Below, piece after piece: positions 5,222-37,004 of a stretch of DNA of 64,000 nt; positions within the stretch are counted from its first letter, which is position 1; the number at the start of each line of letters is the position of its first letter. The stretch lies in assembly GCA_030428885.1 (NCBI GenBank), contig JAUIEJ010000001.1:434001-498000 (forward strand), read 5' to 3'. The notes beneath the pieces were generated by a model. That model was not told where the DNA came from and searched no databases. It was given only the letters and a program-made list of their open reading frames with translations. This DNA is from Gemmatimonadota bacterium (lineage in GTDB: Bacteria > Gemmatimonadota > Gemmatimonadetes > Longimicrobiales > Gaopeijiaceae). The translations under genes and the position numbers were made by a program.

Positions 5222-5306
5222 GATGCTGCCTGCTCCTGGTTCCTGCTCTGCGTTTCCCGGGCCCCACCCGAATTCCGAGACCCCCCGGGGGTCCGGAGCG
5301 TTGGTC

Positions 5307-6191: not shown

Positions 6192-6401
6192 GGAGTACAC
6201 CTCCGACGGGGGGTTCGTCGATCGCCCCCGGACGGGTGCCGGGGCTCGAGCGGGAGGGATCATGGGTCGGGGAGCGGAGTGCTGGCAAGGGAATTGCTGG
6301 CGCGAACGCCCGGAGCCACCGTATTCTGACGGTCTGTGGGAACCAGGGCGGGGCGTGGCGGGCGGGAGCGAAAACCCTACCCTCGACAACAGAGGTCGTG
6401 T

Positions 6402-8831
6402 ATGAAGGTCGTCGGACTCCTCGCCGGTTTCGGCGCGGTGCTGGTGGCGGCGTCCGTGGAGCCGGGTGCCGCCGGCCCCGGACCGGAGATCCAACCGGCC
6501 ATGGCGTCGTTCCGGGCGCTGTCGCCCGACGAGAGCAACGAGGTCATCGAGGAGTACTGCCAGCGCTGCCACAACGACCGGCGCATGAGTGGCAACATGT
6601 CCCTCGCCGACTTCGACGCGGCCCTGGCCTACGAGCAGGCTCCCACCGCCGAGCGCATGATCCGGAAGCTCCGGGCCGGCATGATGCCGCCCCCGGGCAC
6701 CGAGCGTCCCGACGAGGCCACCCTCCAGGGCCTGGCCACCCAGCTCGAGGCCACCATCGACTCGGCGTCGGCGCTGCGGCCGAACCCCGGGACCCGCACC
6801 TTCCAGCGCCTCAACCAGGCCGAGTACGCGGCGTCGATCCGCGAACTCCTGGCCCTGGACATCGATCCCGAGGGCTACCTGCCCCCGGACACCAAGAGCG
6901 CCAATTTCGACAACATCGCCGACGCCCAGTTGCTGTCGCCGATTCTCATGGACGCCTACCTCAACGCCGCGGCCGAAGTGGCGCGGCTGGCCGTGGGCGA
7001 TCCCGAGGCGATTCCCAGCGAGGCGACCTACAAGGTGCCCCGGCTGGCGTCCCAGACCGAGCACGTGGAGGGCGCGCCCTTCGGCACCCGGGGCGGCATC
7101 AGCGTGGTCCACACCTTCCCTGCCGACGGAGAATACCGGTTCCGGATCCTCCTCCAGCCCACGCCCACCGGCGAACTGTTCGCCCGGACGGCTCGCGACG
7201 AGCGGCTGGAGATCAGCGTGGACGGAGAGCGGGTGGCTCTCCTGGAGATCGACCGCTGGATGTCCCAGTCCGATCCCGACGGCACCGAGATGGAGACCGA
7301 CGTGGTGCCCGTCCGGGCCGGACCCCACCGGATCTCGGCGGCGTTCCTCCCCACCCAGGAAGGGCCCGTCGTCGACGTCCTCTCGCCCATCGGCCACAGC
7401 CTGGCCGACACCCAGATCGGGTTGGCGTACGGCATCACCACCGTGCCCCACCTCCGGGAACTCCGCATCGGGGGGCCCTTCGAGGTGACGGGCGTCTCCG
7501 ACACGCCCAGCCGTCGTGAGGTCTTCCACTGCCGTCCCACCGCCCCCGCCGAAGAGGAGCCCTGCGCGACGCGGATCCTCACCCGCCTCTCCACGAAGGC
7601 GTATCGGCGTCCCGTGGCCGACGACGACCTGGCCGACCTGCTGGCCTTCTACCGCGACGGGCACGCTCAGGGCGGGTTCGAGGCCGGCATCCGCACCGCC
7701 ATCCAGGCCATGCTGGCGAGCCCCCACTTCCTCTTCCGCATCGAGGAGCTGGGCGAGCCCACCGACGTGGACGGGGTCTATGCCCTCACCGGCGTCGACC
7801 TGGCCACCCGCCTGTCGTACTTCCTCTGGGGCGCGCCCCCGGACGGTGAACTCCTGGCGGTGGCCCGGGATGGGCGGCTGGCCGACACCGAGGTCATGGA
7901 GGCCCAGGTGCGCCGCATGCTGGCCGACCCCGCCGCCGAGGCCATGGGCCAGCGGTTCGCGGCCCAGTGGCTGCGCCTGTCGGACATCGAGAAGGTGCAT
8001 CCCGACGCCTTGAAGTACCCGAACTTCGACACCCAGTTGTCGGAGGACATGGTCGAGGAGACGATCCGCTTCTTCAACCATCTGGTCCAGGCCGACGAGA
8101 GCGTCCTCGATCTTCTCACCGCCGACTACAGCTTCGTCAACGAGCGCCTGGCCCGGCACTACGGGATTCCGGGCATCGCCGGCGACGACTTCGAGCAGGT
8201 GTCGTATCCCATGGAGCATCGCCGGGGCCTGCTGGGCCACGGCAGCGTCCTGACCCTGACCTCCCATGCCAACCGCACCTCGCCGGTGCTCCGGGGCAAG
8301 TGGGTCATGGAGGTCCTCCTGGGCACGCCGCCGCCGCCCCCGCCGCCCGACGTTCCCGACCTGGACGCCACCAGCGAGGCGGTGGACGGCCGCTACCTGA
8401 CCGTCCGGGAGCAGATGGAACTGCACCGGTCCAACCCGAGTTGCAACTCGTGCCACTCGGTGATCGATCCCCTGGGCCTGGCCCTGGAGAACTACGACGT
8501 CACCGGCCGCTGGCGCATCAAGGACTCGGGCAACCCCGTGGACGTGCGGGGCGAGCTCTACGACGGCACGCCCCTGAACTCGGTGGAGGATCTCCGTGAG
8601 GCGCTCCTCAAGCGCCCCGAGCCCTTCCTGCGCACGTTCACCGAGAACCTGATGGCCTACGCCCTGGGCCGCCGGGTCGAGTACTACGACATGCCCACGA
8701 TCCGGGCCATCACGCGCCGGGCCGCCGCCGCCGACCATCGGCTCTCGGCCTACATTCTCGGCGTAGTGGACAGCGACGCGTTCCGGCTGAAGGCCGCCGA
8801 CGCAGCCGTGACCGACGCCGCATCCTACTGA
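6402..8831 (+). CDS. DUF1592-family c-type heme protein (DUF1587/1595/1592/1588/1585 architecture)
   Basis: 809 residues from ATG 6402, chosen because a signal peptide (residues 1-24, ending 'VEPGAAG') follows it. CQRCH at 53-57 is a c-type heme site. The central 'FQRLNQAEYAASIRELL' block opens the DUF1587-like region, 'LSTKAYRRPVADDD' and 'LASPHFLFRIE' belong to the DUF1595/DUF1592 core, 'RRGLLGHGSVLTLTSHANRTSPVLRGKW' to DUF1588, and the C-terminus has a second heme site, CNSCH, at about 680-684 followed by 'VIDPLGLALENYD' (DUF1585). These large exported proteins are common in Planctomycetes, Acidobacteria and Gemmatimonadota and nearly always precede a DUF1552 gene, as here. Biochemical function is not established. 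Confidence 0.9.
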   Translation: MKVVGLLAGFGAVLVAASVEPGAAGPGPEIQPAMASFRALSPDESNEVIEEYCQRCHNDRRMSGNMSLADFDAALAYEQAPTAERMIRKLRAGMMPPPGTERPDEATLQGLATQLEATIDSASALRPNPGTRTFQRLNQAEYAASIRELLALDIDPEGYLPPDTKSANFDNIADAQLLSPILMDAYLNAAAEVARLAVGDPEAIPSEATYKVPRLASQTEHVEGAPFGTRGGISVVHTFPADGEYRFRILLQPTPTGELFARTARDERLEISVDGERVALLEIDRWMSQSDPDGTEMETDVVPVRAGPHRISAAFLPTQEGPVVDVLSPIGHSLADTQIGLAYGITTVPHLRELRIGGPFEVTGVSDTPSRREVFHCRPTAPAEEEPCATRILTRLSTKAYRRPVADDDLADLLAFYRDGHAQGGFEAGIRTAIQAMLASPHFLFRIEELGEPTDVDGVYALTGVDLATRLSYFLWGAPPDGELLAVARDGRLADTEVMEAQVRRMLADPAAEAMGQRFAAQWLRLSDIEKVHPDALKYPNFDTQLSEDMVEETIRFFNHLVQADESVLDLLTADYSFVNERLARHYGIPGIAGDDFEQVSYPMEHRRGLLGHGSVLTLTSHANRTSPVLRGKWVMEVLLGTPPPPPPPDVPDLDATSEAVDGRYLTVREQMELHRSNPSCNSCHSVIDPLGLALENYDVTGRWRIKDSGNPVDVRGELYDGTPLNSVEDLREALLKRPEPFLRTFTENLMAYALGRRVEYYDMPTIRAITRRAAAADHRLSAYILGVVDSDAFRLKAADAAVTDAASY

Positions 8832-24331: not shown

Positions 24332-24876
24332 ACACCATGCTGCGAATCCCTGCCGCGGTCCTCCTCTCCGCCGCCCTCCTGGCCCCCTCGGCCGCCGCCG
24401 CCCAGGACTACGACCCCGAGGCCCGCCTGGCCGACCTGGGCATCACCCTGCCCGTTCCCCAGGGGCCCAGTCGCTCCGCCTACGACCGCACGGTCCGGAC
24501 GGGCAACCTGGTCTTCACCGCCGGCCACGCCCCCTGCGGCGAGTGGGAGGGCACGGGTCGGGGCAAGGTGCCCACCGAGGCCAGCCTGGAGGAAGCCCAG
24601 GCCGCGGCCCGTCAGGTGGTGATCTGCATCCTGGGCTCCCTGAAGGCCGAGATCGGCGACCTGAGCCGGGTGACGCGGGTGGTCCGGGTGTTCGGCATGG
24701 TCAACTCGGCCCCCGACTTCACCCAGCAGTCCCAGGTGATGAACGCCGCCAGCGAACTCCTCAACGAGGTCTTCGGCGACCGGGGCCGCCACGTGCGGTC
24801 GGCCGTGGGCATGGCCGCGCTGCCGGTGAACCTGACCGTGGAGATCGAGATGGTCTTCGAGGTGGAGGAAGGCTGA
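24328..24876 (+). CDS. Exported RidA (YjgF/YER057c/UK114) family protein
   Basis: 182 residues from GTG 24328 (overlapping the cyclase stop); ATG 24337 gives nearly the same signal peptide, which ends about residue 24 ('PSAAAAQ'). The RidA fold follows: 'RTGNLVFTAGHAP', 'EAQAAARQVVICILGSLKAEIGDLSRVTRVVRVFGMVN', 'SELLNEVFGDRGRHVRSAVGMAALPVNLTVEIEMVFEV'. Cytoplasmic RidA deaminates reactive enamines. This sequence has 'RGRHVRSAVG' where RidA proper has an arginine that holds the substrate carboxylate, so it resembles the divergent 'RidA-like' subfamilies. Export is unusual but common for this subgroup. Confidence 0.85.
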   Translation: MNTMLRIPAAVLLSAALLAPSAAAAQDYDPEARLADLGITLPVPQGPSRSAYDRTVRTGNLVFTAGHAPCGEWEGTGRGKVPTEASLEEAQAAARQVVICILGSLKAEIGDLSRVTRVVRVFGMVNSAPDFTQQSQVMNAASELLNEVFGDRGRHVRSAVGMAALPVNLTVEIEMVFEVEEG

Positions 24877-25703
24877 CGGGATACACCACCCGCGAGGTTT
24901 CCGAGGTTCTCGGGATTCCGACCGACCGCCTCCGGCGGTGGGCCCGGCAGGGGCTTCTGGAGGCGGCAAAAAGTGCCGACGGCGGGTGGAGGTTCACCTT
25001 TCCCGACATCATTCTGCTGCGGGCCGCCGAGGAACTGCGGGAGGCCGGCGTCTCGGGCCAGCGCATCGCCCGAGCGCTTCGGAGCCTGGCGACCCAGCTT
25101 CCCGCAGGCCGCCCCCTGAGCGCGGTGCGCATCGCCGCCCGGGGCGACGAGGTGCTGGTCCGGGACGCCGACACGGTCTGGGCCCCCGCTACCGAGCAGG
25201 TGGCGTTCGACTTCTCCGTGGGCGAACTCGCCTCCCGGGTCGAACCGTTCGCCGCCCGCATGGCCCGGGAGCGCGAGGCCGCCGGCGACATGGGTGCCGA
25301 CGACTGGTACGACCTGGGCTTCGACCTGGAGGCCGTGTCCATGGTCGAGGCGAAACGGGCCTATGCCGAGGCATTGCGCCTCGATCCGGGGCATCCCGAC
25401 GCCCTGGTGAACATGGGACGCCTCCGTCACGAGGAAGGTGACCCGGCCGGTGCCGAGGCCCGGTATCGGGCGGCCCTGGCCACCGATCCGCATCACGCCG
25501 TGGCACGCTTCAACCTCGGCGTCGCCCTGGAGGACCAGGGCCGGACCGAGGCCGCCATCGTCGCCTATCGCCGCGCCATCGGTGGCGATCCGGGTCTTCC
25601 CCAGGCCCACTTCAATCTGGCCCGACTCCTGGAACGGGCCGGCGACGTGCAGGGGGCCGTGCGCCATCTGGCGGCCTATCGGCGCCTCCGGGAGACGGGC
25701 TGA
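24873..25703 (+). CDS. MerR-type HTH regulator fused to TPR repeats
   Basis: The frame starts inside the RidA stop region. The HTH begins 'YTTREVSEVLGIPTDRLRRWARQGLL', so the start must lie just upstream of 24879. No ATG, GTG or TTG is available there; CTG at 24873, behind GGAGGAAGG, is the best choice, giving 276 residues. Residues 1-70 are a MerR/Xre-like winged helix ('ADGGWRFTFPDIILLRAAEELREAGVSGQRI'). A middle segment of unknown role (about 75-150) leads to three or four TPR units (about 155-270, 'AYAEALRLDPGHPDALVNMGRL'). Family members act as one-component regulators. It directly precedes the riboswitch-led operon. Confidence 0.75.
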   Translation: MTGYTTREVSEVLGIPTDRLRRWARQGLLEAAKSADGGWRFTFPDIILLRAAEELREAGVSGQRIARALRSLATQLPAGRPLSAVRIAARGDEVLVRDADTVWAPATEQVAFDFSVGELASRVEPFAARMAREREAAGDMGADDWYDLGFDLEAVSMVEAKRAYAEALRLDPGHPDALVNMGRLRHEEGDPAGAEARYRAALATDPHHAVARFNLGVALEDQGRTEAAIVAYRRAIGGDPGLPQAHFNLARLLERAGDVQGAVRHLAAYRRLRETG

Positions 25704-25806
25704 GGGTATTCTGCGACCGTCCGGGTCGTTCGAAATGCACTGAATCGTGCGATTTTCGGCACCGATCTTGCCATCCGGAGATCTACGTACGGACCGGCAG
25801 AACGTC

Positions 25807-25893
25807 GGAGCCCGTAGCGGCAAACCGTCGGTGACGGCGGGACGCAAAGCCAGGGGTCCCTCGGAAGAGGGATGGCCCGGTTGCCGGGATTCC
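25807..25893 (+). ncRNA. Cyclic-di-GMP-I (GEMM-I) riboswitch aptamer
   Basis: The GEMM-I core is present. P1 can form between GGAGCCC (25807-25813) and GGGATTCC (25886-25893). CAAACC is followed by a stem CCGTCG/CGGCGG closed by a GTGA (GNRA) tetraloop, then the invariant GACGCAAAGCC, a P3 stem (GGGGTCCCTC...GAGGGATGGCCC) with the receptor region, and GGTTGCCG. Aligned to the Vibrio Vc2 aptamer, the ligand-contacting position equivalent to G20 reads G, which favours c-di-GMP over cGAMP (A20 in Geobacter cGAMP switches). It lies 111 bases before the multiheme cytochrome operon. Identification is by eye against the known consensus. Confidence 0.92.
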
Positions 25894-25955
25894 AGGCCGG
25901 AGGCGCTCGATGCGGGCGCCCCCCGACGGGGTCCTCACGAACCGTGAAGACACCC

Positions 25956-25984
25956 GGCCGCACGCCCTCCCGTGCGGCCTTTCC
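25956..25984 (+). terminator. Terminator-like hairpin, probable riboswitch expression platform
   Basis: A perfect 9-base-pair stem, GGCCGCACG with CGTGCGGCC (25956-25964 and 25971-25979), six-base loop CCCTCC, then TTT. It lies 62 bases after the aptamer and 20 bases before the first start codon, with AGGAG (25989-25993) immediately downstream. This position suits ligand-controlled termination. The T-tract is short, so it may need a helper factor or act on translation instead. Whether c-di-GMP turns the operon on or off cannot be told from the sequence. Confidence 0.7.
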
Positions 25985-26003
25985 AGACAGGAGAACAAAC
26001 GAC

Positions 26004-26855
26004 GTGCTCGCGACGGTTCTCGCGGTCCTGTGGATCGGGATCGCCGGGTGGGTCACGTGGTCCGGGTTGGATTTCTACCTCCTTCCCCTGGATCAGCGTG
26101 CCTATTCCCCCTTGTTCGACCAATGGGGCCCCACCGGGTTGTGGGGCCAGGGACTGGGCATCGTGGGGACCGCCATGATGACCCTCGGGGTCGTGGGCTA
26201 CATGGTGCGGAAACGGGTCGGCGTCCTGCAGTCGGCCGGCTCCCTCCGGCATTGGCTCCAGGTGCACATCTTCCTCTGCACCCTCGGGCCCTACTTCGTG
26301 ATGCTGCATACGACCTTCAAGTTCGGCGGCATCATCTCCGTGGCGTTCTGGAGCATGGCCGTGGTCGTGGCCAGCGGCGTCTTCGGACGCTACGTCTACG
26401 CCCGGATTCCCAAGACCATCCAGGGTCGATTCCTCGATCTCGAGGCGGTGATCGAGCGGAGTCGGGCCCTGGTGGACACGCTCCACGAACGGACCGGAAT
26501 CGCCGCCGACGAGATCCGCGCCCTCCTCGAGGGCGACCCGGTTCCGGCTCGCGCCCCCGGGCTGGTGGGGTCCCTGGCCCTGGCCGTGCGGTCCGACGTC
26601 GAAGGTCGCCGCACCCGCCGGGAAGTGCGGCGGTTTCTTCGGGCCCGATCGGTTCCCGCCGACCTCCACGCCGGGTTCATCGATCTCGCGGCCCAGCAGC
26701 ACCGGCTGCGGCGGCAGGCGCTCCTCCTCCACCCGTTCCAGCGCCTCTTCCGGTACTGGCACGTCGTCCATCTGCCCCTCGCGGTCACCATGTTCGTGAT
26801 CCTCGCGGTGCACGTGGCGGTGGCCGTGGCGTTCGGCTACACCTGGATCTTCTGA
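26004..26855 (+). CDS. Inner-membrane b-type cytochrome-like protein of the multiheme operon
   Basis: 283 residues from GTG 26004, with AGGAG 10 bases upstream; longer in-frame starts would fall inside the riboswitch. Four to five transmembrane helices: about 1-20, 45-68, 83-105, 110-135 and a C-terminal one (about 255-280). Histidines placed for heme ligation occur in 'HWLQVHIFL', 'FVMLHTTFKFG', 'YWHVVHLPLAV' and 'ILAVHVAVAV', suggesting up to two b-hemes. A cytoplasmic charged stretch (about 145-235) separates the helices. By position it would take electrons from the quinol pool and pass them to the periplasmic cytochromes. I do not recognise a named family with certainty. Confidence 0.7.
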   Translation: MLATVLAVLWIGIAGWVTWSGLDFYLLPLDQRAYSPLFDQWGPTGLWGQGLGIVGTAMMTLGVVGYMVRKRVGVLQSAGSLRHWLQVHIFLCTLGPYFVMLHTTFKFGGIISVAFWSMAVVVASGVFGRYVYARIPKTIQGRFLDLEAVIERSRALVDTLHERTGIAADEIRALLEGDPVPARAPGLVGSLALAVRSDVEGRRTRREVRRFLRARSVPADLHAGFIDLAAQQHRLRRQALLLHPFQRLFRYWHVVHLPLAVTMFVILAVHVAVAVAFGYTWIF

Positions 26856-26857
26856 CC

Positions 26858-27457
26858 ATGCCGTCCTCCGCCCGCCTCCCCCTCGCCCTGTCCCTCGTTC
26901 TCGGACTGGCCATCTCGGGGGTGCTGTATGCCCGGCGCGCCGGGGGACCGGAGTCCGCCCCGGACGATCCGGCGGCGGCCGCCGCCCGGGCCCACGAGGC
27001 CGCCGGGGTCGTGGTGGGCGACGTGGGGCCCGTGGCCCCGGGCTTCCAGGCCCGGATCGACTCCCTCACCGCCCGCATGGAGTCCGCCCCGGACGATCTC
27101 GACCGGGTGCTCGAACTCGCCCGGTTGCTCCACGATGGGCATCGCCCCGACGAGGCCGTCCCCCTCTACCGGCGCGCCCAGGAACTCGAGCCCGGCCGGG
27201 CCGAGGTCACCTACGATCTGGCCGCGGCTCTTTCGGCGGCCGGCGACGGGGAGGGGGCCTCCGACGTCCTGCGGCGCCGGCTGGACGACGTCCCCGACGA
27301 CGCCGTCGCCATGTACAACCTGGGGGCGCTCCGGGCCAACGCCGGGGACACGGAGGGGGCTCGCCGGTGGTTCGACCGCGCGGTGACCACCACGTCGGAC
27401 GGCGCCCTCCGGGCCCGGGCCCGGGAAGCGCTGGACCGTCTCGGAGGCGACCGGTGA
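26858..27457 (+). CDS. TPR protein of the multiheme operon (NrfG/CcmH-like)
   Basis: 199 residues, starting two bases after the previous stop. An N-terminal signal anchor (about 5-25, 'LALSLVLGLAISGVLYA') is followed by three or four TPR units (about 70-195: 'RVLELARLLHDGHRPDEAVPLYRRAQELEPGRAEVTYDLAAAL', 'AVAMYNLGALRANAGDTEGARRWFDRAV'). Anchored TPR proteins of this size resemble NrfG/CcmI, which hold apocytochromes during heme attachment. With 51 heme sites encoded in the next two genes, a role as an apocytochrome or assembly chaperone is plausible. This is inference from context. Confidence 0.75.
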   Translation: MPSSARLPLALSLVLGLAISGVLYARRAGGPESAPDDPAAAAARAHEAAGVVVGDVGPVAPGFQARIDSLTARMESAPDDLDRVLELARLLHDGHRPDEAVPLYRRAQELEPGRAEVTYDLAAALSAAGDGEGASDVLRRRLDDVPDDAVAMYNLGALRANAGDTEGARRWFDRAVTTTSDGALRARAREALDRLGGDR

Positions 27458-28968
27458 TGGGGGCCCGGAGAGCCTCCATCGGCGTCTTCCTCGCCGCGAC
27501 GGCGACCCTGTTCGCCGCGTCGCCGGCGGCCGCTCAGTTGATCTCTCCGGGCAAGCTCGCGGCGCCCCACGCCGAACTCGAGGGGATCCGCAACTGCACC
27601 CGATGCCACCAGCTCGGGCGGCGCGGCGTGAGCCGGGATCTCTGCCTGGACTGCCACACCCCCCTCGGCGCCCGTCTGACTCGCGACGAGGGCTTCCACG
27701 CCTCGCTGGCCGAGCCCGACTGCGCCTCGTGCCACAAGGACCACTTCGGCGTGGAGTTCGAGTTGGTGAAGCTCGACACCCTCGCCTTCGATCACGATCG
27801 CACCGGTCACGTCCTGGAAGGTGCCCACGCCGAGGCCGGCTGCCGGACCTGCCACACCCCGTCGGCCGTGGCCGACCCCGAGGTGCGCCGCGTCAAGGCC
27901 GAGCGGGGGGGCCTGGATCGGACGTTCCTCGGTCTGGCCACCCGGTGCCTCGACTGCCACGCGGGGGACGATCCCCACGCCGGCACCTTCCCCGGTCAGG
28001 CATGCACCGACTGCCACGACCAGACCGACTGGGCGGGGGCCGACGGCTTCGACCACGCCGACACTTCCTACCCCCTCACGGGCCGGCACCGGGCGGCCGA
28101 TTGCACCGGATGCCACGTGAACCTGCCGGCCCGGGGCGCCGGAGACGGGTGGGGTCCCGACGTGGAGCTTCGATTCGACGGGGTTCTCGCCGGGGCCTGC
28201 ACCGACTGTCACGCCGCCGACGATCCCCACGGCGGAGCCATGACCGGTCCCTGTTCGTCGTGCCATGCCACGTCCGGGTGGCGAGGCGTGGACCGCCGCC
28301 GGGTGGAATCGAGCTTCGATCACACCACGACCGGGTTCGATCTGATCGGCGCCCACGGCGCCCTGGAGTGCGCCTCGTGCCACGACGCGGCCGCTGCCGG
28401 CCGCCTCGACGGCATCGCCCTCACCTTCGATCCCGCGAGCCGAGGTCACGCCTTCCCTCCCCCGGCCTCCGACCGATGCATGGCGTGTCACGTCGACCGC
28501 CACGAGGGCCTCTTCGACGACCGTCCGGGTGGTCCGGAATGCGCCGAGTGCCACGGTGTGGCGGAGTGGTTGCCCGCCGACTACGACCTCACCCGCCACA
28601 ACGCCGAGGCCGCCTTCCGTCTGGAAGGATCCCACGCGGTCGTCCCGTGCGTCACCTGCCACGAGACGCCCGACGGCGCTCTGCGCTTCGACATCGGGGT
28701 GCCGGACGGCTGCGCCACCTGTCACGCGGTGGACGATCCCCACGGGGAGCAGTTCGCCGACCGCACGTGTGATTCCTGCCACGGGATCGACGCGTTCACC
28801 CCGGTGGCCGTCGATCACGACGCCACCCGCTATCCCCTCGACGGAGCCCACGCGGACCTCGACTGCGCCTCCTGCCATCGGGCCGAGCCCGACGGGGCGG
28901 GGGGCACCCGGATCCGCTATCGACCCCTGGGCACCGAGTGCCGCGATTGCCACGGAGGTACCCCGTGA
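27457..28968 (+). CDS. 17-heme c-type cytochrome, exported
   Basis: 503 residues; the ATG overlaps the TPR stop (TGATG). A signal peptide (1-26, ending 'AASPAAAQ') is followed by 17 CXXCH motifs counted through the whole length, starting at 'NCTRCHQ' and ending at 'ECRDCHGG'. Between them are repeated distal-histidine patterns ('FDHADTSYPLTGRH', 'FDHTTTGFDLIGAH', 'DHDATRYPLDGAH') that would give bis-histidine hemes. The fold resembles the NapC/cytochrome c3-like class III multiheme family. Expected location is the periplasm, bridging inner and outer membranes. The stop overlaps the next GTG by four bases, so translation is coupled. Confidence 0.93.
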   Translation: MGARRASIGVFLAATATLFAASPAAAQLISPGKLAAPHAELEGIRNCTRCHQLGRRGVSRDLCLDCHTPLGARLTRDEGFHASLAEPDCASCHKDHFGVEFELVKLDTLAFDHDRTGHVLEGAHAEAGCRTCHTPSAVADPEVRRVKAERGGLDRTFLGLATRCLDCHAGDDPHAGTFPGQACTDCHDQTDWAGADGFDHADTSYPLTGRHRAADCTGCHVNLPARGAGDGWGPDVELRFDGVLAGACTDCHAADDPHGGAMTGPCSSCHATSGWRGVDRRRVESSFDHTTTGFDLIGAHGALECASCHDAAAAGRLDGIALTFDPASRGHAFPPPASDRCMACHVDRHEGLFDDRPGGPECAECHGVAEWLPADYDLTRHNAEAAFRLEGSHAVVPCVTCHETPDGALRFDIGVPDGCATCHAVDDPHGEQFADRTCDSCHGIDAFTPVAVDHDATRYPLDGAHADLDCASCHRAEPDGAGGTRIRYRPLGTECRDCHGGTP

Positions 28969-31628
28969 CCCTCCCCCTCCTCTTCCGCCCGCTTCGGGGC
29001 GCCCTGGGGGCGGCCACGGCATGGCTCGCCCTGGCGGCCTCGGGCTTCCTCGCTCCGGTGGCCGCCCAGGAGAATCCCCACGGGCCCCTGCCCGGGGACC
29101 TGGACTGCGCGGCGTGCCACACGCCGGCGGGGTGGGCGCCGCTCCGGCCCGACCTCCAGTTCACCCATGGCGGGCTCCGGGGATTCGAGCTGACCGGTGC
29201 CCACGCCGAGGCCACCTGCGCCTCGTGTCACCTCGATCTGCGGTTCGACGGCCCCACGGTGAGTGCCGCGGACTGCGGAGGCTGCCACGTCGACGTCCAC
29301 GACGGTCAGCTCCTGAACGACTGCGCCTCCTGCCACGACACCGACAGCTTCCGGGACGTCGACGGCTCCCTGGTGCACGCCCTCACGGCCCTGCCCCTCG
29401 ACGGTGCCCATCTGGAAGTGCCGTGTGAGGGCTGTCACGCCGATGAAGGTCGCGGGCTCTACACGGGCCTCGACCCCGACTGTGCCGCCTGCCACCGCAA
29501 CGCCTTCGAGTCCGCCGAGACCGTCGACCACGTGGCCGCCGGCTACCCGACGGATTGTACCCAGTGTCACACGGCGTTGGGATGGTCCGATGCGCCGTTG
29601 TTCGACCACCTGGCGGCCTCCGACGGTTTCGGCCTTCTCGGCGCCCACCGGGAGGTCCAGTGCGCCTCGTGTCACGTCGTGCCGGGAATGGCGCCCATCT
29701 TCGACGCGGCCGGCCCCGACGACTGCGTGGCGTGCCACCAGGTCGATTTCGACCGCGAGCATCCCGGGTCCGACTTCTCGACCGATTGCACGATCTGCCA
29801 CACCGTCGACGAGTGGAGCGTCACCGACTTCGACCACGACCTCACGGGCTTCGATCTGCTGGGGGCCCACGCGCCTCTGGACTGCGGCGATTGCCATACG
29901 AACGGGCACCGGGGACTCTGGTTCGACACCCCCGCCGACGAGCAGGACTGCGTCGTGTGTCATCAGGCCGACTACGACGAGGAACACGCCGGCACCGGGT
30001 TCCCCCTCGAGTGTGCGTCCTGCCACACCGTCGACGACTGGGAAGACGCCGAGTTCGATCACGGTGACACGAACTTCCCCCTCGTCGGTCGCCACGCCGA
30101 CGAGGATTGCACGATCTGCCACGGTCCGGGAGGCACCCTCGTGGTCCCCCGACCGTCGGGCCCCCAGGACTGCGTGTCCTGCCATCAGGCCGACTACGAC
30201 GATGAGCACGCGGGCTCGGGTTTTCCCACGAACTGCCTCGACTGCCACGACCAGAACGACTGGGACGACGCGACCATCGACCACCCGGCCATGGCCAACG
30301 GCTTCGAGCTGCTCGGTCGTCATGCCCAGGCCGAGTGCGCCAGTTGCCACACCACGCCCGACTTCGGCCTCCATTGGGCGGCCCCCTCGGGTCAGAACGA
30401 CTGCGTGGTGTGCCACCAGACCGACTACGACGGCGAGCACGCCGGTACGGGCTTCCCCCTGGACTGCGCGTCCTGCCACGCCGAGACCACCTGGGAGGGG
30501 GCGACCTTCGACCACGGCGACACCGGCTTCCCGCTGAGGGGCGCCCACGACGCGGCCGACTGCGCCACCTGCCACGCCGACGGGGGCACCCTGGTGGTTC
30601 CCCAGCCGACGGGCCCCGACGACTGCGTGTCGTGCCACCAGACCGACTACGACGGGGAGCACGCCGGGTCGGGCTTCCCCTCGAGCTGTCTGGACTGCCA
30701 CACCGAGACCACCTGGGAGGGGGCGACCTTCGACCACGCCACCACCGGCTTCCCGCTGAGGGGGGCCCACGACGCGGCCGACTGCGCGACCTGCCACGGA
30801 GACGGGGGCACCCTGGTGGTTCCCCAGCCCTCGGGCCCCGACGACTGCGTGTCGTGCCACCAGACGGACTACGACGGCGAGCACGCCGGCACCAGCATCC
30901 CCACGAGCTGTCTCGACTGCCACTCGGAGACGACCTGGGAGGGCGCCACCTTCGACCACGCCTCCACCGGCTTCCCGCTCGTGGGGGCCCACGACGCCGC
31001 CGACTGTGCGACGTGCCACGGTGACGGCGGCACGCTGGTGGTGCCCCAGCCCTCGGGTCCCGACGACTGCGTGACCTGTCACCAGCTCGAGTACGACGGC
31101 GAGCACGGAGGGTCGGGGCTGCCCACCACCTGCCTGGACTGCCACAGCCAGACCACGTGGGAAGGCGCCACGTTCGACCACGGGACCACGGGCTTCGCCC
31201 TCGTGGGGGCCCACGACGCGGCCCAGTGCGCGTCGTGCCACGTGATTCCCGGGTACGCGCTCCACACGGGAACCCCGTCGTTCCAGGACGACTGCGTGGC
31301 GTGCCACCAGACCGACTACGACGGGGAGCACGCCGGGAGCGGGTATCCGAACACCTGTCTGGTCTGCCACGATCAGACCGCCTGGGACAACTCGAGCTTC
31401 GATCACGACGCCCAGTACTTCCCGATCTTCTCGGGCAAGCACCGCACGGAGTGGGGCAACCAGTGCTCCACGTGCCACACCGACCCCCTCGACTACGCCG
31501 TCTTCACCTGCATCGACTGCCACGAGCACCGACAGTCGAAGGCCGATGATCAGCACAAGGACGAGTCGGGATACGCGTGGGACAGCGCCGCCTGCTACTC
31601 CTGCCACGCCAACGGGAGAAGCGAATGA
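28965..31628 (+). CDS. 34-heme c-type cytochrome with tandem three-heme repeats
   Basis: 887 residues. GTG 28965 overlaps the previous stop and has GGAGG seven bases upstream. A signal peptide ends about residue 35 ('FLAPVAAQ'). I count 34 CXXCH sites; there is no transmembrane helix or lipobox. From 29721 the gene is made of eight tandem units of 222-231 bases (74-77 residues), each with three CXXCH and three more conserved histidines (in 'DGEH', 'FDH' and 'GAH'), a set sufficient for three bis-His hemes. Such linear arrays conduct electrons over long distances in metal-reducing bacteria. It is probably the extracellular or porin-embedded conductor; heme loading is not proven. Confidence 0.93.
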   Translation: MTLPLLFRPLRGALGAATAWLALAASGFLAPVAAQENPHGPLPGDLDCAACHTPAGWAPLRPDLQFTHGGLRGFELTGAHAEATCASCHLDLRFDGPTVSAADCGGCHVDVHDGQLLNDCASCHDTDSFRDVDGSLVHALTALPLDGAHLEVPCEGCHADEGRGLYTGLDPDCAACHRNAFESAETVDHVAAGYPTDCTQCHTALGWSDAPLFDHLAASDGFGLLGAHREVQCASCHVVPGMAPIFDAAGPDDCVACHQVDFDREHPGSDFSTDCTICHTVDEWSVTDFDHDLTGFDLLGAHAPLDCGDCHTNGHRGLWFDTPADEQDCVVCHQADYDEEHAGTGFPLECASCHTVDDWEDAEFDHGDTNFPLVGRHADEDCTICHGPGGTLVVPRPSGPQDCVSCHQADYDDEHAGSGFPTNCLDCHDQNDWDDATIDHPAMANGFELLGRHAQAECASCHTTPDFGLHWAAPSGQNDCVVCHQTDYDGEHAGTGFPLDCASCHAETTWEGATFDHGDTGFPLRGAHDAADCATCHADGGTLVVPQPTGPDDCVSCHQTDYDGEHAGSGFPSSCLDCHTETTWEGATFDHATTGFPLRGAHDAADCATCHGDGGTLVVPQPSGPDDCVSCHQTDYDGEHAGTSIPTSCLDCHSETTWEGATFDHASTGFPLVGAHDAADCATCHGDGGTLVVPQPSGPDDCVTCHQLEYDGEHGGSGLPTTCLDCHSQTTWEGATFDHGTTGFALVGAHDAAQCASCHVIPGYALHTGTPSFQDDCVACHQTDYDGEHAGSGYPNTCLVCHDQTAWDNSSFDHDAQYFPIFSGKHRTEWGNQCSTCHTDPLDYAVFTCIDCHEHRQSKADDQHKDESGYAWDSAACYSCHANGRSE
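29721..31512 (+). repeat. Eight tandem 222-231 bp repeats inside the 34-heme cytochrome gene
   Basis: Each unit begins at GACTGCGT (the 'DDCVxCHQ' motif) at 29721, 29946, 30168, 30399, 30621, 30843, 31065 and 31290. Spacings are 225, 222, 231, 222, 222, 222 and 225 bases. The units at 30399, 30621 and 30843 are nearly identical in DNA, including silent positions, which points to recent unequal crossing-over or ongoing gene conversion; outer units are more diverged. The unit length stays a multiple of three, so gain or loss of a unit would add or remove exactly three hemes. Confidence 0.9.
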
Positions 31629-33310
31629 GAATCGGGTCCGGCGTGGCCGCCTGGATGGTCGCCGCCACCCTCGCCGGGGCGCCGGTGGACCTTCACGCCC
31701 AGGACCCCGCACCGGGGCCTCGGGTCGAAGCCCGGGTGCGGCAGGTGGCGGGCTCCACGATCTACGTCGACCTGGGCACGGACCACGGTCTGGCCGTGGG
31801 CGACACGCTGGACGTCTCCCGCCGCGGCGCCGACACCGTCGTCGGGCGACTGACCGTGGCGGTGGCGAGTCCGGTCCGGTCGGTGCTTTCGTTCGCCGGG
31901 GCGGCCTTCTCGGTGACCCGGGGCGAAGTCCTGGCGTTCGGGCTGCTGCGAGCCCCCTCGGTCGAACCGCCTCCCGTCGACGAACCGGCGGAGGCCCCCG
32001 AGCCGGCGGCCGGGCGCTCTCGGGCCGGCGCCTCGCAAGCCGGGGCGGAGCCCGTCGAGGGCGGGAGCGACGACCCGTCGCCCCCGGGCGCCGCCTCCGC
32101 CGCCCCGGTCCGGGCCCCGAGGGTCCCGGCCGTGCCCGCGAGCGGTCGCTGGTCGCTGGAGATGGCCGTGAATCGCTCGAGTTCGGAGGTGGGCACCGAG
32201 GTCGATCCGGTGGAGATCTCCCGCACCTTCGCCACGCCCGCGCTGCGACTCGATCTACGGGCGCCCGGGGCCGTGGGGGGCTTCGACCTGCGCCTCAGTA
32301 CGCGCACGACGTACCGCTACGGCACCGACCCGGGCTTCGACCCCACCTGGTCTCCCCGGGTCTACGAGGCGTCACTGGAGCGCCGGTTCGAAGGGGCCCC
32401 GGTGCACCTCGTCCTGGGGCGATTCCACTCTCCGGGGGAGTCGTTCAGCGGCTACTGGGACGGCGCCTCATTGCGCCTCGGGGGCAAGGGATTCGGCGTG
32501 GGAGCCATAGCCGGACTCCAGCCCGATCGATGGAACCAGCTCCCCACGGCCGACCTCCCCAAGGCGTCGGTGTTCATGGACTTCGACAGGAACGGCGAAG
32601 GGGTGCGTTGGCTCGGCGACGTGTCCGCCCACGTGGCGTGGCCCAGCGACGGCGCCCCCACCCATACGTGGTTCGGGTTCGGACAGCGGGTGTCCACCGA
32701 CCGACTCCGCCTGCGGCAGGAGGTCCAGGTCGATCGCGACCCGTTCGAGGGGGGTCTCCACCTCTCCCTCCTCACCGCGCGGGCCTCCTTCGCGGCGTCC
32801 CCGGCCTTCGACGTGCGAGCCGGCGTCTCCCGTCGGGAAACCTACCTGGTCTGGGCGTTGGACGGAGACGACCTCTTCTCATCGCGGCGGGACCGGGCCG
32901 ACGTCGGCGTCTCGATCCGGGGCGGCGGTCGCTACTGGTCCACCGACGTCGGGCTGAACCGCGACGTGGCGGGCAACGTCACCCGCTCCGTCACGTCGTC
33001 GTTCTCTGCTCCCCGGGTCGCCGGGAGCGTGGGCTTCCTCGCCTCGGCGTCGTGGTGGGACGGCGACACGGGCCATGCCCTCTCGATGGCTCCTTCCCTG
33101 TCGTGGCGGTGGGGTTCGGCCCGCCTCCGCACGGGCTATCGGTTCTACTCCTCCGACGTTCTCGGTCGGGCCCGCACCACCCATTCGCCCGACGTCTCCA
33201 TCGACGTACCCTTCTCCGGGGGCGTCCGAGCGACCCTGCGAATGCGGGGACGGTGGGGCGACGCGGTGCGGAGCGAGTTCGTGCAGTTCAATCTCAGTCG
33301 CGTCTTCTGA
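31625..33310 (+). CDS. Outer-membrane beta-barrel (porin-like) partner of the multiheme cytochromes
   Basis: 561 residues; ATG overlaps the 34-heme stop (ATGA). A signal peptide ends about residue 26 ('VDLHAQ'). Residues about 30-110 form a small beta domain ('STIYVDLGTDHGLAVGDTLDVSRRG', resembling the FlgT C-terminal fold), then a Pro/Ala/Glu linker (about 115-175). From about 180 there are alternating amphipathic strands with aromatic girdles, and the protein ends 'FVQFNLSRVF', with the C-terminal phenylalanine required by the BAM machinery. In porin-cytochrome systems such a barrel sheathes a multiheme cytochrome across the outer membrane. The sequence shows a barrel; the specific role rests on operon position. 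Confidence 0.8.
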   Translation: MRIGSGVAAWMVAATLAGAPVDLHAQDPAPGPRVEARVRQVAGSTIYVDLGTDHGLAVGDTLDVSRRGADTVVGRLTVAVASPVRSVLSFAGAAFSVTRGEVLAFGLLRAPSVEPPPVDEPAEAPEPAAGRSRAGASQAGAEPVEGGSDDPSPPGAASAAPVRAPRVPAVPASGRWSLEMAVNRSSSEVGTEVDPVEISRTFATPALRLDLRAPGAVGGFDLRLSTRTTYRYGTDPGFDPTWSPRVYEASLERRFEGAPVHLVLGRFHSPGESFSGYWDGASLRLGGKGFGVGAIAGLQPDRWNQLPTADLPKASVFMDFDRNGEGVRWLGDVSAHVAWPSDGAPTHTWFGFGQRVSTDRLRLRQEVQVDRDPFEGGLHLSLLTARASFAASPAFDVRAGVSRRETYLVWALDGDDLFSSRRDRADVGVSIRGGGRYWSTDVGLNRDVAGNVTRSVTSSFSAPRVAGSVGFLASASWWDGDTGHALSMAPSLSWRWGSARLRTGYRFYSSDVLGRARTTHSPDVSIDVPFSGGVRATLRMRGRWGDAVRSEFVQFNLSRVF

Positions 33311-33320
33311 CGAGTTCGTG

Positions 33321-34643
33321 ATGGATCCGGCCCTCCTGGAAAACCCGCTGGTGTTCTGGCTTCTGGCGGGACTGCTCACGGCGGTGGTCTCGCTGCCCTT
33401 CGTGCTCCATGCCCGGCGGAAGGAGCTCGAAACCATCGAGGCCCGTGAGGAGGCGTCGCGCTACGGCCTGGACATCCCCGCGAGCCTTCATCCCGTGGTG
33501 GATCCGGGGGGGTGCATCGGCATCTCCAACTGCGTGAAGGTCTGCCCCGAAGACGTACTGGGCATCGAACACGGGCAGGCGGTGGCGGTGCGGCCGGCCC
33601 GCTGCATCGGCCACGGGCTCTGCGAGCGCGTGTGCCCCGTCGACGCGATCCAGCTCGTATTCGGCACGGCCACCCGGGGCGTCGAGCTGCCCCGGATCAA
33701 GGAGAACTTCGAGACCAACGTCGAAGGGATCTACGTGGTGGGAGAGCTGGGGGGCATGGGGCTGGTGGCCAACGCCTTCGAGCAGGGACGGCAGTGCATC
33801 GAGGGCATCGTGAAGGAGTCCGCGAAGGGTCCGCCGGGCATCGCCGACCTCATCATCGTGGGGTGCGGACCCGCGGGGCTGTCCGCCTCCCTCACCGCCC
33901 TCCACCACGGCATGACGTTCCTGACCCTGGAGAAGGAGGACGTGGGCGGCACCGTGGCCCACTACCCCCGCAAGAAGTTGGTCATGACGCGGCCCGTGAA
34001 GGTGCCGGGCTACGGCAAGCTCTCCTTCCGTGAGGTGCGGAAGGAAGAGCTCATGGGCGTCTGGCAGGACGTCATCGACCGCTCGGGGCTCGAGGTCCTC
34101 ACCGGCGAAACCGTCGAGGGCATCCAGAAGGTCGGGCGCCACCACTTCCGGGTGGTGTCCAGCGGCGGCACGTACGAGGCCGCCCGGGTGATCCTGGCCA
34201 TCGGCCGGCGGGGCGTCCCCCGCAAGCTCGGGGTGCCGGGGGAGGCGGCCCCCCACGTGCAGTACTCGCTCCGGGAGCCCGAGGTGTACAAGGGGGAGCG
34301 GGTCCTGGTGGTGGGTGGCGGCGACTCGGCCGTGGAGGCCGCTCTCGCCCTGGCCGACCAGCCCGACACCGAGGTGCGCATGTCGTACCGCCGCGAGGCC
34401 TTCAACCGCATCAAGCCCGGCAACTTCGACCGCATCGCCCGGGCCCAGGACGACGGGGCGGTGGAGGTACTCTGGCGGTCCAACACCACGCGCATCGAAC
34501 CCGAGGCGGTGCACCTGGAACTCGAGGAAGAGGCCGTCGCCGTCCCCGCCGACCAGGTCTTCATCTTCGCCGGGGGCGTGCTCCCCACGGCCTTCCTCCG
34601 CAACTGCGGAATCCAGATCGAGACGAAGTTCGGGCAGCCCTGA
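33321..34643 (+). CDS. Membrane-anchored ferredoxin-like/FAD/NAD(P)-binding oxidoreductase
   Basis: 440 residues from ATG 33321, ten bases after the barrel gene. A transmembrane helix (about 9-30) comes first. Two ferredoxin-like motifs follow (about 55-105), 'CIGISNCVKVCP' and 'CIGHGLCERVCP'; each has three cysteines in C-x5-C-x3-CP spacing and lacks the second cysteine of a normal 4Fe-4S motif (Ile and His instead). Then a thioredoxin-reductase-like part: FAD-binding 'DLIIVGCGPAGLSASL' and NAD(P)-binding 'VLVVGGGDSAVEAALAL', ending 'GIQIETKFG'. No redox CxxC of thioredoxin reductase is seen. It could connect NAD(P)H with the membrane cytochrome. Confidence 0.85.
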   Translation: MDPALLENPLVFWLLAGLLTAVVSLPFVLHARRKELETIEAREEASRYGLDIPASLHPVVDPGGCIGISNCVKVCPEDVLGIEHGQAVAVRPARCIGHGLCERVCPVDAIQLVFGTATRGVELPRIKENFETNVEGIYVVGELGGMGLVANAFEQGRQCIEGIVKESAKGPPGIADLIIVGCGPAGLSASLTALHHGMTFLTLEKEDVGGTVAHYPRKKLVMTRPVKVPGYGKLSFREVRKEELMGVWQDVIDRSGLEVLTGETVEGIQKVGRHHFRVVSSGGTYEAARVILAIGRRGVPRKLGVPGEAAPHVQYSLREPEVYKGERVLVVGGGDSAVEAALALADQPDTEVRMSYRREAFNRIKPGNFDRIARAQDDGAVEVLWRSNTTRIEPEAVHLELEEEAVAVPADQVFIFAGGVLPTAFLRNCGIQIETKFGQP

Positions 34644-34766
34644 CCCACCGACGCGGGGCCCTCCGCGGCGCCCGTCGTTTCCGGTGCGGGTCCCGATCCC
34701 CTAGGTTGCCGGGCCGCGCGTCGGCCCGGTCCCGCGCCCCTTCGTCGTCTCATCGCCCCCGCCTCC

Positions 34767-37004
34767 GTGCCCGAGACCGCACGCTCCACACCACCTCCCC
34801 GCGATCCCGTCGTGGCGGGCCGCGAGGGCGGCCTCGGCACCTTCGGCGGGGTCTTCACGCCGTCGCTGCTGACGATCCTCGGCGTGATCATGTACCTGCG
34901 CTTCGGCTGGGTCGTGGGCAACGTGGGGCTCGTGGGCACGCTGGTGATCGTGACGTTGTCCACCTCCATCACGTTCCTCACCGGCCTCTCCATCGCGGCC
35001 ATCGCCACCGACCAGCGGGTCCGCACCGGCGGCGCGTACTACATGATCAGCCGGTCGTTGGGCATCGAGACCGGCGGGGCCGTGGGCATCCCCCTCTTCC
35101 TGGCCCAGGCCCTGTCCGTGGCCCTGTACACGGTGGGGTTCGCCGAGGCCGTGGTGGGGGCCTTTCCCGGCTTCGACGCGCGCACCGTGGGTGTGGTCAC
35201 CACAGTGGCCGTCGCGGCCCTGGCCCTGATCTCGGCCCGGGTGGCCATTCGCAGCCAGTACATCATCATGGGGGCCATCGCCCTCTCCCTGATCTCGCTG
35301 GCCCTGGGGTCCCCCCTGGATCCCGACAACACCGAGGCCACCGTCCGGACGATCAACAACGCCCGGGAGCCGTTCTGGGCCGTCTTCGCCGTCTTCTTTC
35401 CCGCCGTGACGGGCATCATGGCCGGGGTGAACATGTCGGGCGATCTGGCCGATCCCGGGCGGTCGATTCCCCGCGGCACCTTCGCGGCCATCGCCGTGGG
35501 TTACGTGATCTACATGGCCCTGCCCATCCTCCTGGTGACCCGGGCCGACACGGCGAGTCTGCTGGTCGACCCCCTGGTCATGCGCCGGGTCTCGCTGTGG
35601 GGCGATGCGATCCTCCTGGGGGTGTGGGGGGCCACCCTGTCGTCGGCGGTGGGGAGCATCCTCGGAGCCCCCCGCGTGCTCCAGGCCCTGGCTCGGGACG
35701 GCGTGTTGCCCCGTCCGCTCCGGTGGCTGGGCAAGGGCAGCGGTCCCGAAGACACGCCCCGGGCGGGCACGGTGCTGACGTTGGCCCTGGCCCTGGTGGC
35801 CGTGTGGGTGGGCGACCTCAACCTCATCGCTCCGGTCCTCACCATGTTCTTCCTCACCACCTACGGCGTGCTCAACGTCGCCGCCGGGGTGGAGCGGTTT
35901 CTCGGCAGTCCCTCGTACCGCCCCCAGTTCCAGGTGCCCTGGGCCGTCTCCCTTCTGGGGGCCGTGGGCTGCATCGCCGTCATGCTCCTCATCAACGCCA
36001 TGGCCACGGCGGCGGCGGCCGTGGTGGTGCTGGGGGTCTTCGTCTACCTGGAGCGGCAGGGACTCGAGGCCACCTTCGGCGACGTGCGCCGCGGGGTGTG
36101 GATGTCCCTCACCCGCACCGGGCTGCTCCGGATCCGCTCCGAGAGCGATCCCCGGAACTGGCGTCCCCACTTTCTCGTGCTGTCGGGGGCGCCCACGAAG
36201 CGCTGGCCCCTCATCGAACTCGCCGACGGCTTCACTCAGGGTAGGGGACTCCTCACCGTCGCCACGGTCGTGCCGCTGGAGGCGGTCTCGGCGGAACGTC
36301 GGGAGTCGCAGGAGCAGGGCATTCGCGAGTACCTGGCCAAGCGCGGCGTGCAGGGTCTCGTGCGGGTCGTGCCCGCGCCCGACCCGTTCTCCGGGGCGGA
36401 GCGGCTGGTGGAGTACTACGGCCTGGGAGCCCTGTCGCCGAACACGGTCCTCGTGGGCGATACGGCCCGCCTCGAGTTGCGGGACCGTTACTGCACCATG
36501 ATCGAGCGCCTCCACTCCGCCCGCCGCAACATCGTCGTGGTGCGCGACGCCGAGAACCGCGGATTCGGCAAGCGGGAGCGCGTCGACATCTGGTGGGGGG
36601 GACTCCAGGGCAACGGGGCCCTCCTCCTGATCCTGGGCTATCTGTTGCGGTCGAGTCTGCGCTGGCGGGGCGCCGACGTGCGCATGATCACCGTGGTGCC
36701 CAACGAGCAGGCCCGGGACCGCACCCTGGCCCACCTCCGCCAGGTGGTGGAGGCCACCCGCACCGGCGTGCGGCCCGTGGTGGTGGTGTCCGAGGGACGC
36801 CCCTTCGACGACATCCTCCACGAGGTGTCCACCGACAGCGACCTGGTGCTCATGGGACTCCAGGCTCCCGAGACCCGGGGCGACGAAGGGTACCGCGTCT
36901 ACGTGGAGTCCATGCGGGAGCGCACGAAGGGGCTGCCGACGACGTTGTTCGTGCTGGCGGGAGAAGAGATCGTGTTCCGCGAGGTGTTGCTCCGGGGGGA
37001 GTGA
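34767..37004 (+). CDS. APC-superfamily cation-chloride cotransporter-like (SLC12-type) permease
   Basis: 745 residues from GTG 34767. Twelve transmembrane helices occupy about 20-450. The SLC12/amino-acid-permease signature is clear: 'GTFGGVFTPSLLTILGVIMYLRFGW', 'TGGAYYMISRSLG', 'ITGIMAGVNMSGDLADPGRSIPRGT' (as PAVTGIMAGVNMS) and 'LSSAVGSILGAPRVLQALARDG'. The long cytoplasmic tail (about 460-745) resembles the SLC12 C-terminal domain with universal-stress-like repeats ('LLLILGYLLRSSLRWRGADVRMITV'). It probably moves K+, Na+ and Cl- or an amino acid. It lies 123 bases after the oxidoreductase gene, so membership in the electron-transfer operon is doubtful. Confidence 0.88.
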   Translation: MPETARSTPPPRDPVVAGREGGLGTFGGVFTPSLLTILGVIMYLRFGWVVGNVGLVGTLVIVTLSTSITFLTGLSIAAIATDQRVRTGGAYYMISRSLGIETGGAVGIPLFLAQALSVALYTVGFAEAVVGAFPGFDARTVGVVTTVAVAALALISARVAIRSQYIIMGAIALSLISLALGSPLDPDNTEATVRTINNAREPFWAVFAVFFPAVTGIMAGVNMSGDLADPGRSIPRGTFAAIAVGYVIYMALPILLVTRADTASLLVDPLVMRRVSLWGDAILLGVWGATLSSAVGSILGAPRVLQALARDGVLPRPLRWLGKGSGPEDTPRAGTVLTLALALVAVWVGDLNLIAPVLTMFFLTTYGVLNVAAGVERFLGSPSYRPQFQVPWAVSLLGAVGCIAVMLLINAMATAAAAVVVLGVFVYLERQGLEATFGDVRRGVWMSLTRTGLLRIRSESDPRNWRPHFLVLSGAPTKRWPLIELADGFTQGRGLLTVATVVPLEAVSAERRESQEQGIREYLAKRGVQGLVRVVPAPDPFSGAERLVEYYGLGALSPNTVLVGDTARLELRDRYCTMIERLHSARRNIVVVRDAENRGFGKRERVDIWWGGLQGNGALLLILGYLLRSSLRWRGADVRMITVVPNEQARDRTLAHLRQVVEATRTGVRPVVVVSEGRPFDDILHEVSTDSDLVLMGLQAPETRGDEGYRVYVESMRERTKGLPTTLFVLAGEEIVFREVLLRGE

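What the first reader, a model, noticed from the sequence alone, without database searches (positions are those of the whole stretch)
29721..31512. 34-heme cytochrome growing by whole three-heme units of 222 bp
Eight tandem units at 29721, 29946, 30168, 30399, 30621, 30843, 31065 and 31290, each with three CXXCH and three other conserved His. The inner units are near-identical at DNA level, which means recent duplication or gene conversion. Such an array could change its length, and therefore conductor length, by unequal crossing-over without frame loss. 34 hemes in one chain is a high number among known cytochromes.
Basis: partly seen in the sequence, partly recalled or inferred. Interest (0 to 1): 0.75.

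Follow-up and report, generated by a model that had tools for sequence, protein, structure and literature searches.

The report
Cytochrome wire growing by three-heme units
This bacterium encodes a protein strung with 34 iron-carrying hemes, and its relatives in several phyla make versions with 13 to 64 hemes that differ by whole three-heme cassettes, so evolution has produced a natural length series of a protein that probably carries electrons out of the cell.

Summary
Confirmed and extended. The gene (28965-31628, start GTG) encodes a secreted 34-heme c-type cytochrome: a 7-heme N-cap, eight three-heme units and a 3-heme C-cap. Only U4-U6 are close at DNA level (82-89%), so 'near-identical' is overstated. 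The longest exact internal repeat is 38 bp, so assembly collapse is very unlikely. Relatives in Gemmatimonadota, Rhodothermia, Bacteroidota and other groups keep both caps and vary the middle: of 50 counted genes (13 to 64 hemes), 49 hold 3n+1 hemes, and the exception has lost one motif. Two Lacihabitans genomes have B proteins 94% identical over 1,162 residues, with one gap of exactly 74 residues, one unit. The operon is conserved: diheme cytochrome b, FAD/4Fe-4S protein, a partner cytochrome of nearly fixed size (17, 20, 23 or 26 hemes), the variable cytochrome, and a plugless beta-barrel of about 22 strands. A c-di-GMP-I riboswitch precedes it here and in one relative. Best reading: an electron conduit to or across the outer membrane whose wire is lengthened in three-heme cassettes. 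Whole-unit growth is shown; wire geometry, location and function are inferred (the AlphaFold model of the cytochrome was unusable). 34 hemes is no record: 86 and 113 are published.

The parts
25809..25888 (+). c-di-GMP-I (GEMM-I) riboswitch aptamer, RF01051, in the operon leader
   Evidence: 64.9 bits, gathering cut-off 35; also directly upstream of the operon in G379/L079 (57 bits)
26004..26855 (+). membrane diheme cytochrome b-like protein (start GTG after AGGAG; the longer ORF from 25872 would overlap the riboswitch)
   Evidence: four invariant His as two H-x13-H pairs in 9 homologues; start from sequence
26852..27457 (+). TPR protein
   Evidence: Pfam TPR_19 8e-11; homologues at the same place in related operons
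27457..28968 (+). cytochrome A: signal peptide, 17 hemes; partner of nearly fixed size (17/20/23/26 in relatives)
28965..31628 (+). cytochrome B: 887 aa, signal peptide, 34 hemes (the finding); start overlaps the stop of cytochrome A
28965..29660 (+). cytochrome B signal peptide and N-cap (7 hemes), with conserved PHG motif before the first heme
   Evidence: N-cap match and spacing 37-19-16-34-19-25 shared with relatives
29661..31463 (+). eight three-heme units (cap-based register)
   Evidence: spacing periodicity about 21-21-32
30399..31064 (+). units U4-U6, the most recently duplicated or homogenised stretch (82-89% DNA identity)
31464..31628 (+). conserved C-cap (3 hemes)
   Evidence: alignment A1: 47-59% identity to relatives in several phyla
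31625..33310 (+). predicted outer-membrane beta-barrel with N-terminal beta domain; about 22 strands, no plug, C-terminal Phe
   Evidence: AlphaFold model pLDDT 77; fold matches; directly downstream of B in 58 of 65 loci with room
33321..34643 (+). FAD / 2x[4Fe-4S] oxidoreductase with N-terminal membrane segment
   Evidence: Pfam Pyr_redox_3 3e-41 and Fer4 domains; conserved in related operons

Best explanation
An operon for an electron conduit from the inner membrane to, and probably across, the outer membrane, in which one component, cytochrome B, has a length that evolves in whole three-heme cassettes. SHOWN: cytochrome B is cap-repeat-cap (N-cap 7 hemes, n units of 3, C-cap 3; n = 8 here and 1 to 18 in relatives). 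Length changes by whole in-frame units, while the caps, the partner cytochrome, the barrel, the b-type cytochrome and the FAD/4Fe-4S protein stay. INFERRED: (1) units are gained and lost by unequal recombination between neighbouring copies, with homogenisation; (2) bis-His hemes in each unit stack end to end, giving roughly 1 nm per heme by analogy with GSU1996, so about 34 nm here and 13-64 nm across the family; (3) electrons pass from quinol or NAD(P)H through the FAD/4Fe-4S protein and diheme cytochrome b to fixed-size cytochrome A in the periplasm, then by way of the barrel to B, which reaches towards an extracellular mineral, electrode or partner; (4) a cyclic-dinucleotide riboswitch ties expression to surface life in this lineage.
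For: Heme counts: 49 of 50 counted genes are 3n+1, with 14 different such values between 13 and 64; the exception (42) has one 55-residue gap where a CXXCH was lost. Single step: Lacihabitans G406 (46 hemes) and G452 (49) are 93.8% identical over 1,162 aa with one gap of exactly 74 aa, next to its near-copy. Lutibacter G426, G403 and G428 show 1, 2 and 3 copies of one 6-heme spacing block; in G403 two copies are 98.8% identical over 406 bp. Emticicia oligotrophica plasmid pEMTOL02 (complete record, cultured strain): 40 hemes, two units 97% identical. Unit tree: 17 of 18 units of the 64-heme protein form one clade (100/99); in the window U5+U6 and U2+U4 pair, while U1 groups with U1 of a relative. 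Three non-CXXCH His per unit conserved in 276 units. Partner A nearly fixed at 17/20/23/26. Conserved neighbours. Barrel model. Riboswitch.
Against: No usable structure for cytochrome B (pLDDT 45), so the linear stacking is unproven. No lipobox or export signal beyond a Sec-type signal peptide was seen, so B could stay in the periplasm. The barrel is not recognisably MtrB. No expression, activity or current data exist. Most relatives are short-read MAGs, and the 64-heme contig has very low stated coverage (1.4x in its record title). The riboswitch was found in only 2 of 42 loci scanned.
Confidence: 0.62

Rival explanations
1. Periplasmic capacitor. Cytochrome B is a soluble periplasmic heme store, as proposed for GSU1996; extra units raise the number of electrons held, not the distance bridged, so length is free to drift with demand.
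For: Sec-type signal peptide with no lipobox or other anchor; GSU1996, built of four three-heme domains, is described as a periplasmic capacitor (PMC10138318); freely varying length fits storage.
Against: The conserved operon neighbour is a wide, plugless outer-membrane barrel (58 of 65 loci), and both caps are strongly conserved, which suggests fixed contacts at both ends of a chain.
Confidence: 0.25
2. Periplasm-spanning network feeding a soluble or periplasmic reductase rather than extracellular electron transfer.
For: Multiheme c3/c7-like proteins often supply periplasmic reductases (own knowledge); Pfam class III matches.
Against: No reductase gene is conserved in the clusters; the conserved extra gene is a barrel.
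Confidence: 0.1
3. The array is an old, stable architecture; unit number does not change on evolutionary time scales that matter.
For: Most unit pairs in most arrays are only 60-75% identical, and three congeners in g73 all have 40 hemes.
Against: One-unit difference between 94%-identical proteins; 97-100% identical unit pairs in several genomes; 22 to 46 hemes within one genus.
Confidence: 0.03
4. Assembly artefact.
For: Repeats can be mis-assembled; one Lacihabitans contig has a run of undetermined residues inside the array (L030).
Against: Window: longest exact internal repeat 38 bp inside a 740-kb contig; a complete plasmid record of a cultured strain shows the same architecture.
Confidence: 0.01

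Closest known systems
Geobacter sulfurreducens GSU1996 / GSU0592 (dodecaheme 'nanowire of hemes' built of four triheme c7-type domains)
   Same: Tandem three-heme modules in one chain; hemes in a line in the crystal structure; weak profile match (PDB 3ov0, E 1e-4); GSU1996 is needed for ferrihydrite reduction and is raised when cGAMP is raised (PMC12094021).
   Different: GSU1996 has four modules, each with one His-Met heme (PMC10138318); here every unit has three conserved His and unit number runs 1-18, with dedicated caps, a partner cytochrome and a barrel.
MtrCAB and Pcc porin-cytochrome conduits
   Same: Periplasmic multiheme cytochrome, outer-membrane barrel and a second multiheme cytochrome in one operon.
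   Different: Far larger cytochromes (17-26 plus 13-64 hemes), barrel with about 22 rather than 26 strands and no detectable MtrB similarity, own b-type and FAD/4Fe-4S inner-membrane proteins; DmsE/MtrA-like NCBIfam cut-off not met.
HmcA (16-heme high-molecular-weight cytochrome of sulfate reducers)
   Same: Best solved-structure profile match (PDB 2e84, E 2e-12); class III-like tandem heme domains.
   Different: NCBIfam HmcA score 35 against a cut-off of 400; different operon; HmcA is not known to me to vary in length by units.
OmcS/OmcE/OmcZ cytochrome filaments
   Same: Proposed long-range heme chains outside the cell.
   Different: Those are polymers of many short monomers; here length is encoded within one chain.
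Very large multiheme cytochromes (86 hemes in D. acetexigens, 113 in Methanoperedenaceae)
   Same: Very many hemes in one chain.
   Different: Not compared in sequence here; whether they grow by units is unknown to me.

Membership tests
Cytochrome_C7 (PF14522) | profile score above Pfam gathering cut-off | tested here: met
   128 bits, cut-off 24.8; the profile is broad and probably rests largely on CXXCH spacing
GSU1996-type triheme-domain nanowire cytochromes | tandem triheme domains in one chain | tested here: met
   eight three-heme units
GSU1996-type triheme-domain nanowire cytochromes | one His-Met heme per domain | tested here: not met
   three conserved non-CXXCH His per unit in 98-100% of 276 units
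GSU1996-type triheme-domain nanowire cytochromes | linear heme packing in the fold | tested here: inconclusive
   AlphaFold model pLDDT 45
MtrA/DmsE decaheme family (TIGR03508) | NCBIfam cut-off | tested here: not met
   48 bits against cut-off 192
MtrB-type porin | MtrB fold of 26 strands | tested here: inconclusive
   model has about 22 strands; no curated Pfam or NCBIfam hit; matches are generic to large barrels
Porin-cytochrome conduit (general sense) | adjacent genes for secreted multiheme cytochromes and an outer-membrane barrel | tested here: met
   58 of 65 loci with at least 1.5 kb downstream
Porin-cytochrome conduit (general sense) | demonstrated electron transfer across the outer membrane | not testable with these tools
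   needs experiment
HmcA (NF045713) | NCBIfam cut-off | tested here: not met
   34.6 bits against cut-off 400
c-di-GMP-I riboswitch (RF01051) | Rfam gathering score | tested here: met
   64.9 bits against 35, full-length 1-87
c-di-GMP-I riboswitch (RF01051) | ligand c-di-GMP rather than cGAMP | not testable with these tools
   ligand specificity needs a binding assay

The most novel reading that the evidence does not exclude
A widespread trans-envelope electron conduit whose wire is a one-chain ruler: evolution adjusts its reach or capacity in 3-heme steps of about 3 nm (13 to 64 hemes) by recombining like-folded cassettes between fixed caps, while the rest of the conduit is unchanged; array length may also differ between strains or cells of one population.
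Probability: 0.35. Interest if true: 0.85.

Novelty: new variant of a known kind. Interest (0 to 1): 0.7.

Why it matters
How electron flow through a chain of hemes depends on its length is mostly a matter of theory and of polymeric filaments whose length is not encoded. Here nature supplies a length series (13, 16, 19 ... 64 hemes) with conserved ends and partners, including cultured species (Emticicia oligotrophica, Lutibacter oceani, Lacihabitans) and a pair that differs by exactly one unit. That makes reach, rate and storage against length directly testable. It also points to a candidate extracellular-electron-transfer system in Gemmatimonadota and Bacteroidota, which I did not find described in the papers I searched.

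Tried and rejected
AlphaFold of cytochrome B on 9 homologues: mean pLDDT 45, pTM 0.21; not used for fold search. PDB sequence search with B alone: no match. MtrB among solved structures: not in the 50 rows shown by Foldseek or by the second look; absence proves nothing. Phage records: no match. Promoter scan: no sigma-70-like site in 24500-35000. Ten literature searches found no description of this family; subscription journals and preprints are not held, so this is weak evidence of novelty. Assembly collapse was considered and judged very unlikely. Not placed in the 50-gene tally: truncated genes; L060, L069, L073 and L076, whose N-cap is incomplete; L069 and L052, where the array lies in two frames (16+30 and 37+9 hemes, each summing to 46); and the variant architectures L040, L050, L051, L083, L085 and L087.

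Full report
WHAT IS THERE. The ORF 28965-31628 (GTG start overlapping the stop of the gene before it) encodes 887 residues with a Sec-type signal peptide and 34 CXXCH motifs; every Cys belongs to a CXXCH. Unit lengths are 222-231 bp with a mode of 222. DNA identity is 89% for U4-U5, 88% for U5-U6 and 82% for U4-U6, and 56-72% for other pairs; dS runs from 0.16 to about 1.5. So there was recent duplication or homogenisation in the middle, but 'near-identical' is too strong. The longest exact internal repeat is 38 bp and the contig is 740 kb, which makes assembly collapse very unlikely.

THE FAMILY. Searches of relatives gave homologues in Gemmatimonadota (42 of 395 genomes sampled by the C-cap profile), Rhodothermia, Bacteroidota and MAGs labelled Zixibacteria and Eisenbacteria. 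They share a strongly conserved C-cap (alignment A1, 47-59% identity to the window) and an N-cap of seven hemes with typical spacing. Between the caps lies a variable number of three-heme units. Across 276 units from 42 proteins each unit carries three conserved His besides the CXXCH His, at 100, 100 and 98%, which implies bis-His ligation of all three hemes.

THE 3n+1 RULE. I counted 50 genes that hold both caps. Hemes, counting CX3-4CH motifs in six of them as hemes: 13 (6 genes), 16 (9), 19 (2), 22 (4), 25 (4), 28 (3), 31 (4), 34 (3), 40 (4), 43 (3), 46 (3), 49 (2), 55 (1), 64 (1), and one of 42 (counts). Forty-nine are 1 mod 3; the 42-heme gene shows a 55-residue gap where one motif was lost. 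Related genes are not independent, but 14 different lengths all in one residue class would occur by chance with probability about (1/3)^13. This tally was assembled by hand from the two tables. Truncated genes, genes with an incomplete N-cap, split arrays and variant architectures were left out, as listed under Tried and rejected. The rule was noticed in the first batch and held in the later ones.

STEPS CAUGHT IN THE ACT. Lacihabitans G406 (46 hemes) and G452 (49) are 93.8% identical over 1,162 residues with a single gap of exactly 74 residues; the extra unit lies beside its near-copy. Within Lutibacter, G426, G403 and G428 carry one, two and three copies of the same 6-heme spacing block, and in G403 two copies are 98.8% identical over 406 bp; G428 has two identical units. 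In Emticicia oligotrophica the whole cluster sits on plasmid pEMTOL02, with 40 hemes and two units 97% identical. In the window's own family the numbers are 13, 16, 28 and 34. A unit tree, weakly resolved for want of columns, places 17 of 18 units of the 64-heme protein together, pairs window U5 with U6 and U2 with U4, and groups window U1 with U1 of a relative (units there in the cap-based register). Older arrays have units only 60-75% identical, so many lengths are long-lived.

THE OPERON. Upstream: a diheme cytochrome b-like membrane protein with two H-x13-H pairs invariant in nine homologues, a TPR protein and a second multiheme cytochrome A. Downstream: a beta-barrel and an FAD/4Fe-4S protein. 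In Bacteroidota the FAD/4Fe-4S gene lies before A, and a cytochrome c synthase (ResB/CcsA) and a GW-domain protein are often present. Cytochrome A has 17 hemes in the window's group and 20, 23 or 26 elsewhere, one case of 18, so it also differs by threes but is nearly fixed within groups, unlike B. The barrel gene follows B in 58 of 65 loci with at least 1.5 kb of downstream sequence (a few of these hits lie elsewhere on the locus, as in the variant architectures). Its model (pLDDT 77) has about 22 strands and no plug, with matches to large barrels in general.

REGULATION. A c-di-GMP-I riboswitch (64.9 bits) lies at 25809-25888, 115 bases before the likely start of the operon. It recurs upstream of the operon in G379, of the same family, and in none of the other 40 loci scanned. 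In the same genome another copy lies just before a gene for a large Ig-like/fn3-repeat protein, which fits a surface-attachment programme. In Geobacter, c-di-GMP and cGAMP govern biofilm formation and electron-transfer genes, and GSU1996 is needed for ferrihydrite reduction (PMC12094021). Ligand identity here is untested.

MECHANISM. Most likely an electron conduit: FAD/4Fe-4S protein and cytochrome b at the inner membrane, fixed cytochrome A in the periplasm, barrel in the outer membrane and B as a wire of evolvable length. The structure model of B failed (pLDDT 45), so a continuous heme chain and a length of about 1 nm per heme are analogies with GSU1996 (12 hemes, title of the structure paper: 12 nm; PMC10138318). 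The main rival is a periplasmic capacitor. Unequal recombination as the cause of unit gain is inferred from whole-unit steps and near-identical neighbours.

NOVELTY. Tandem triheme domains, porin-cytochrome operons and very large cytochromes are known. What I did not find described is a family in several phyla with conserved caps and a unit number of 1 to 18, alongside nearly fixed partners. The literature held here excludes most subscription journals and preprints.

Noticed in passing
window 25809-25888; L079 4587-4672: c-di-GMP-I riboswitch in front of the operon here and in the 28-heme relative of the same family, but not in the 13- and 16-heme relatives of that family.
   Followed up: partly
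L116 (G000:C18) 4559-7897, minus strand: Another c-di-GMP-I riboswitch of this genome lies directly before a 1113-residue protein with Big_2, fn3 and other Ig-like domains, a likely surface adhesin.
   Followed up: partly
L112 (NC_018749.1): The whole cluster, with its own sigma-70-family factor and CcsA gene, sits on plasmid pEMTOL02 of the cultured Emticicia oligotrophica DSM 17448.
   Followed up: partly
L050, L083, L085, L087 (G048, G090, G320, G356): A variant family in which the C-cap-like module, with non-canonical CX3-4CH motifs, is repeated about four times and the barrel gene lies upstream in three of the four loci (L083, L085, L087).
   Followed up: no
L069 (G112) and L052 (G376): The array is split over two frames (16+30 and 37+9 hemes), each summing to 46; frameshift or true gene split.
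   Followed up: no
L092 (G416), cytochrome B: A 42-heme member in which one CXXCH is missing inside an otherwise regular array.
   Followed up: no
G001-G005 (same genus): None of five other genomes of the window's genus gave a match to cytochrome B, so the cluster is patchy.
   Followed up: no
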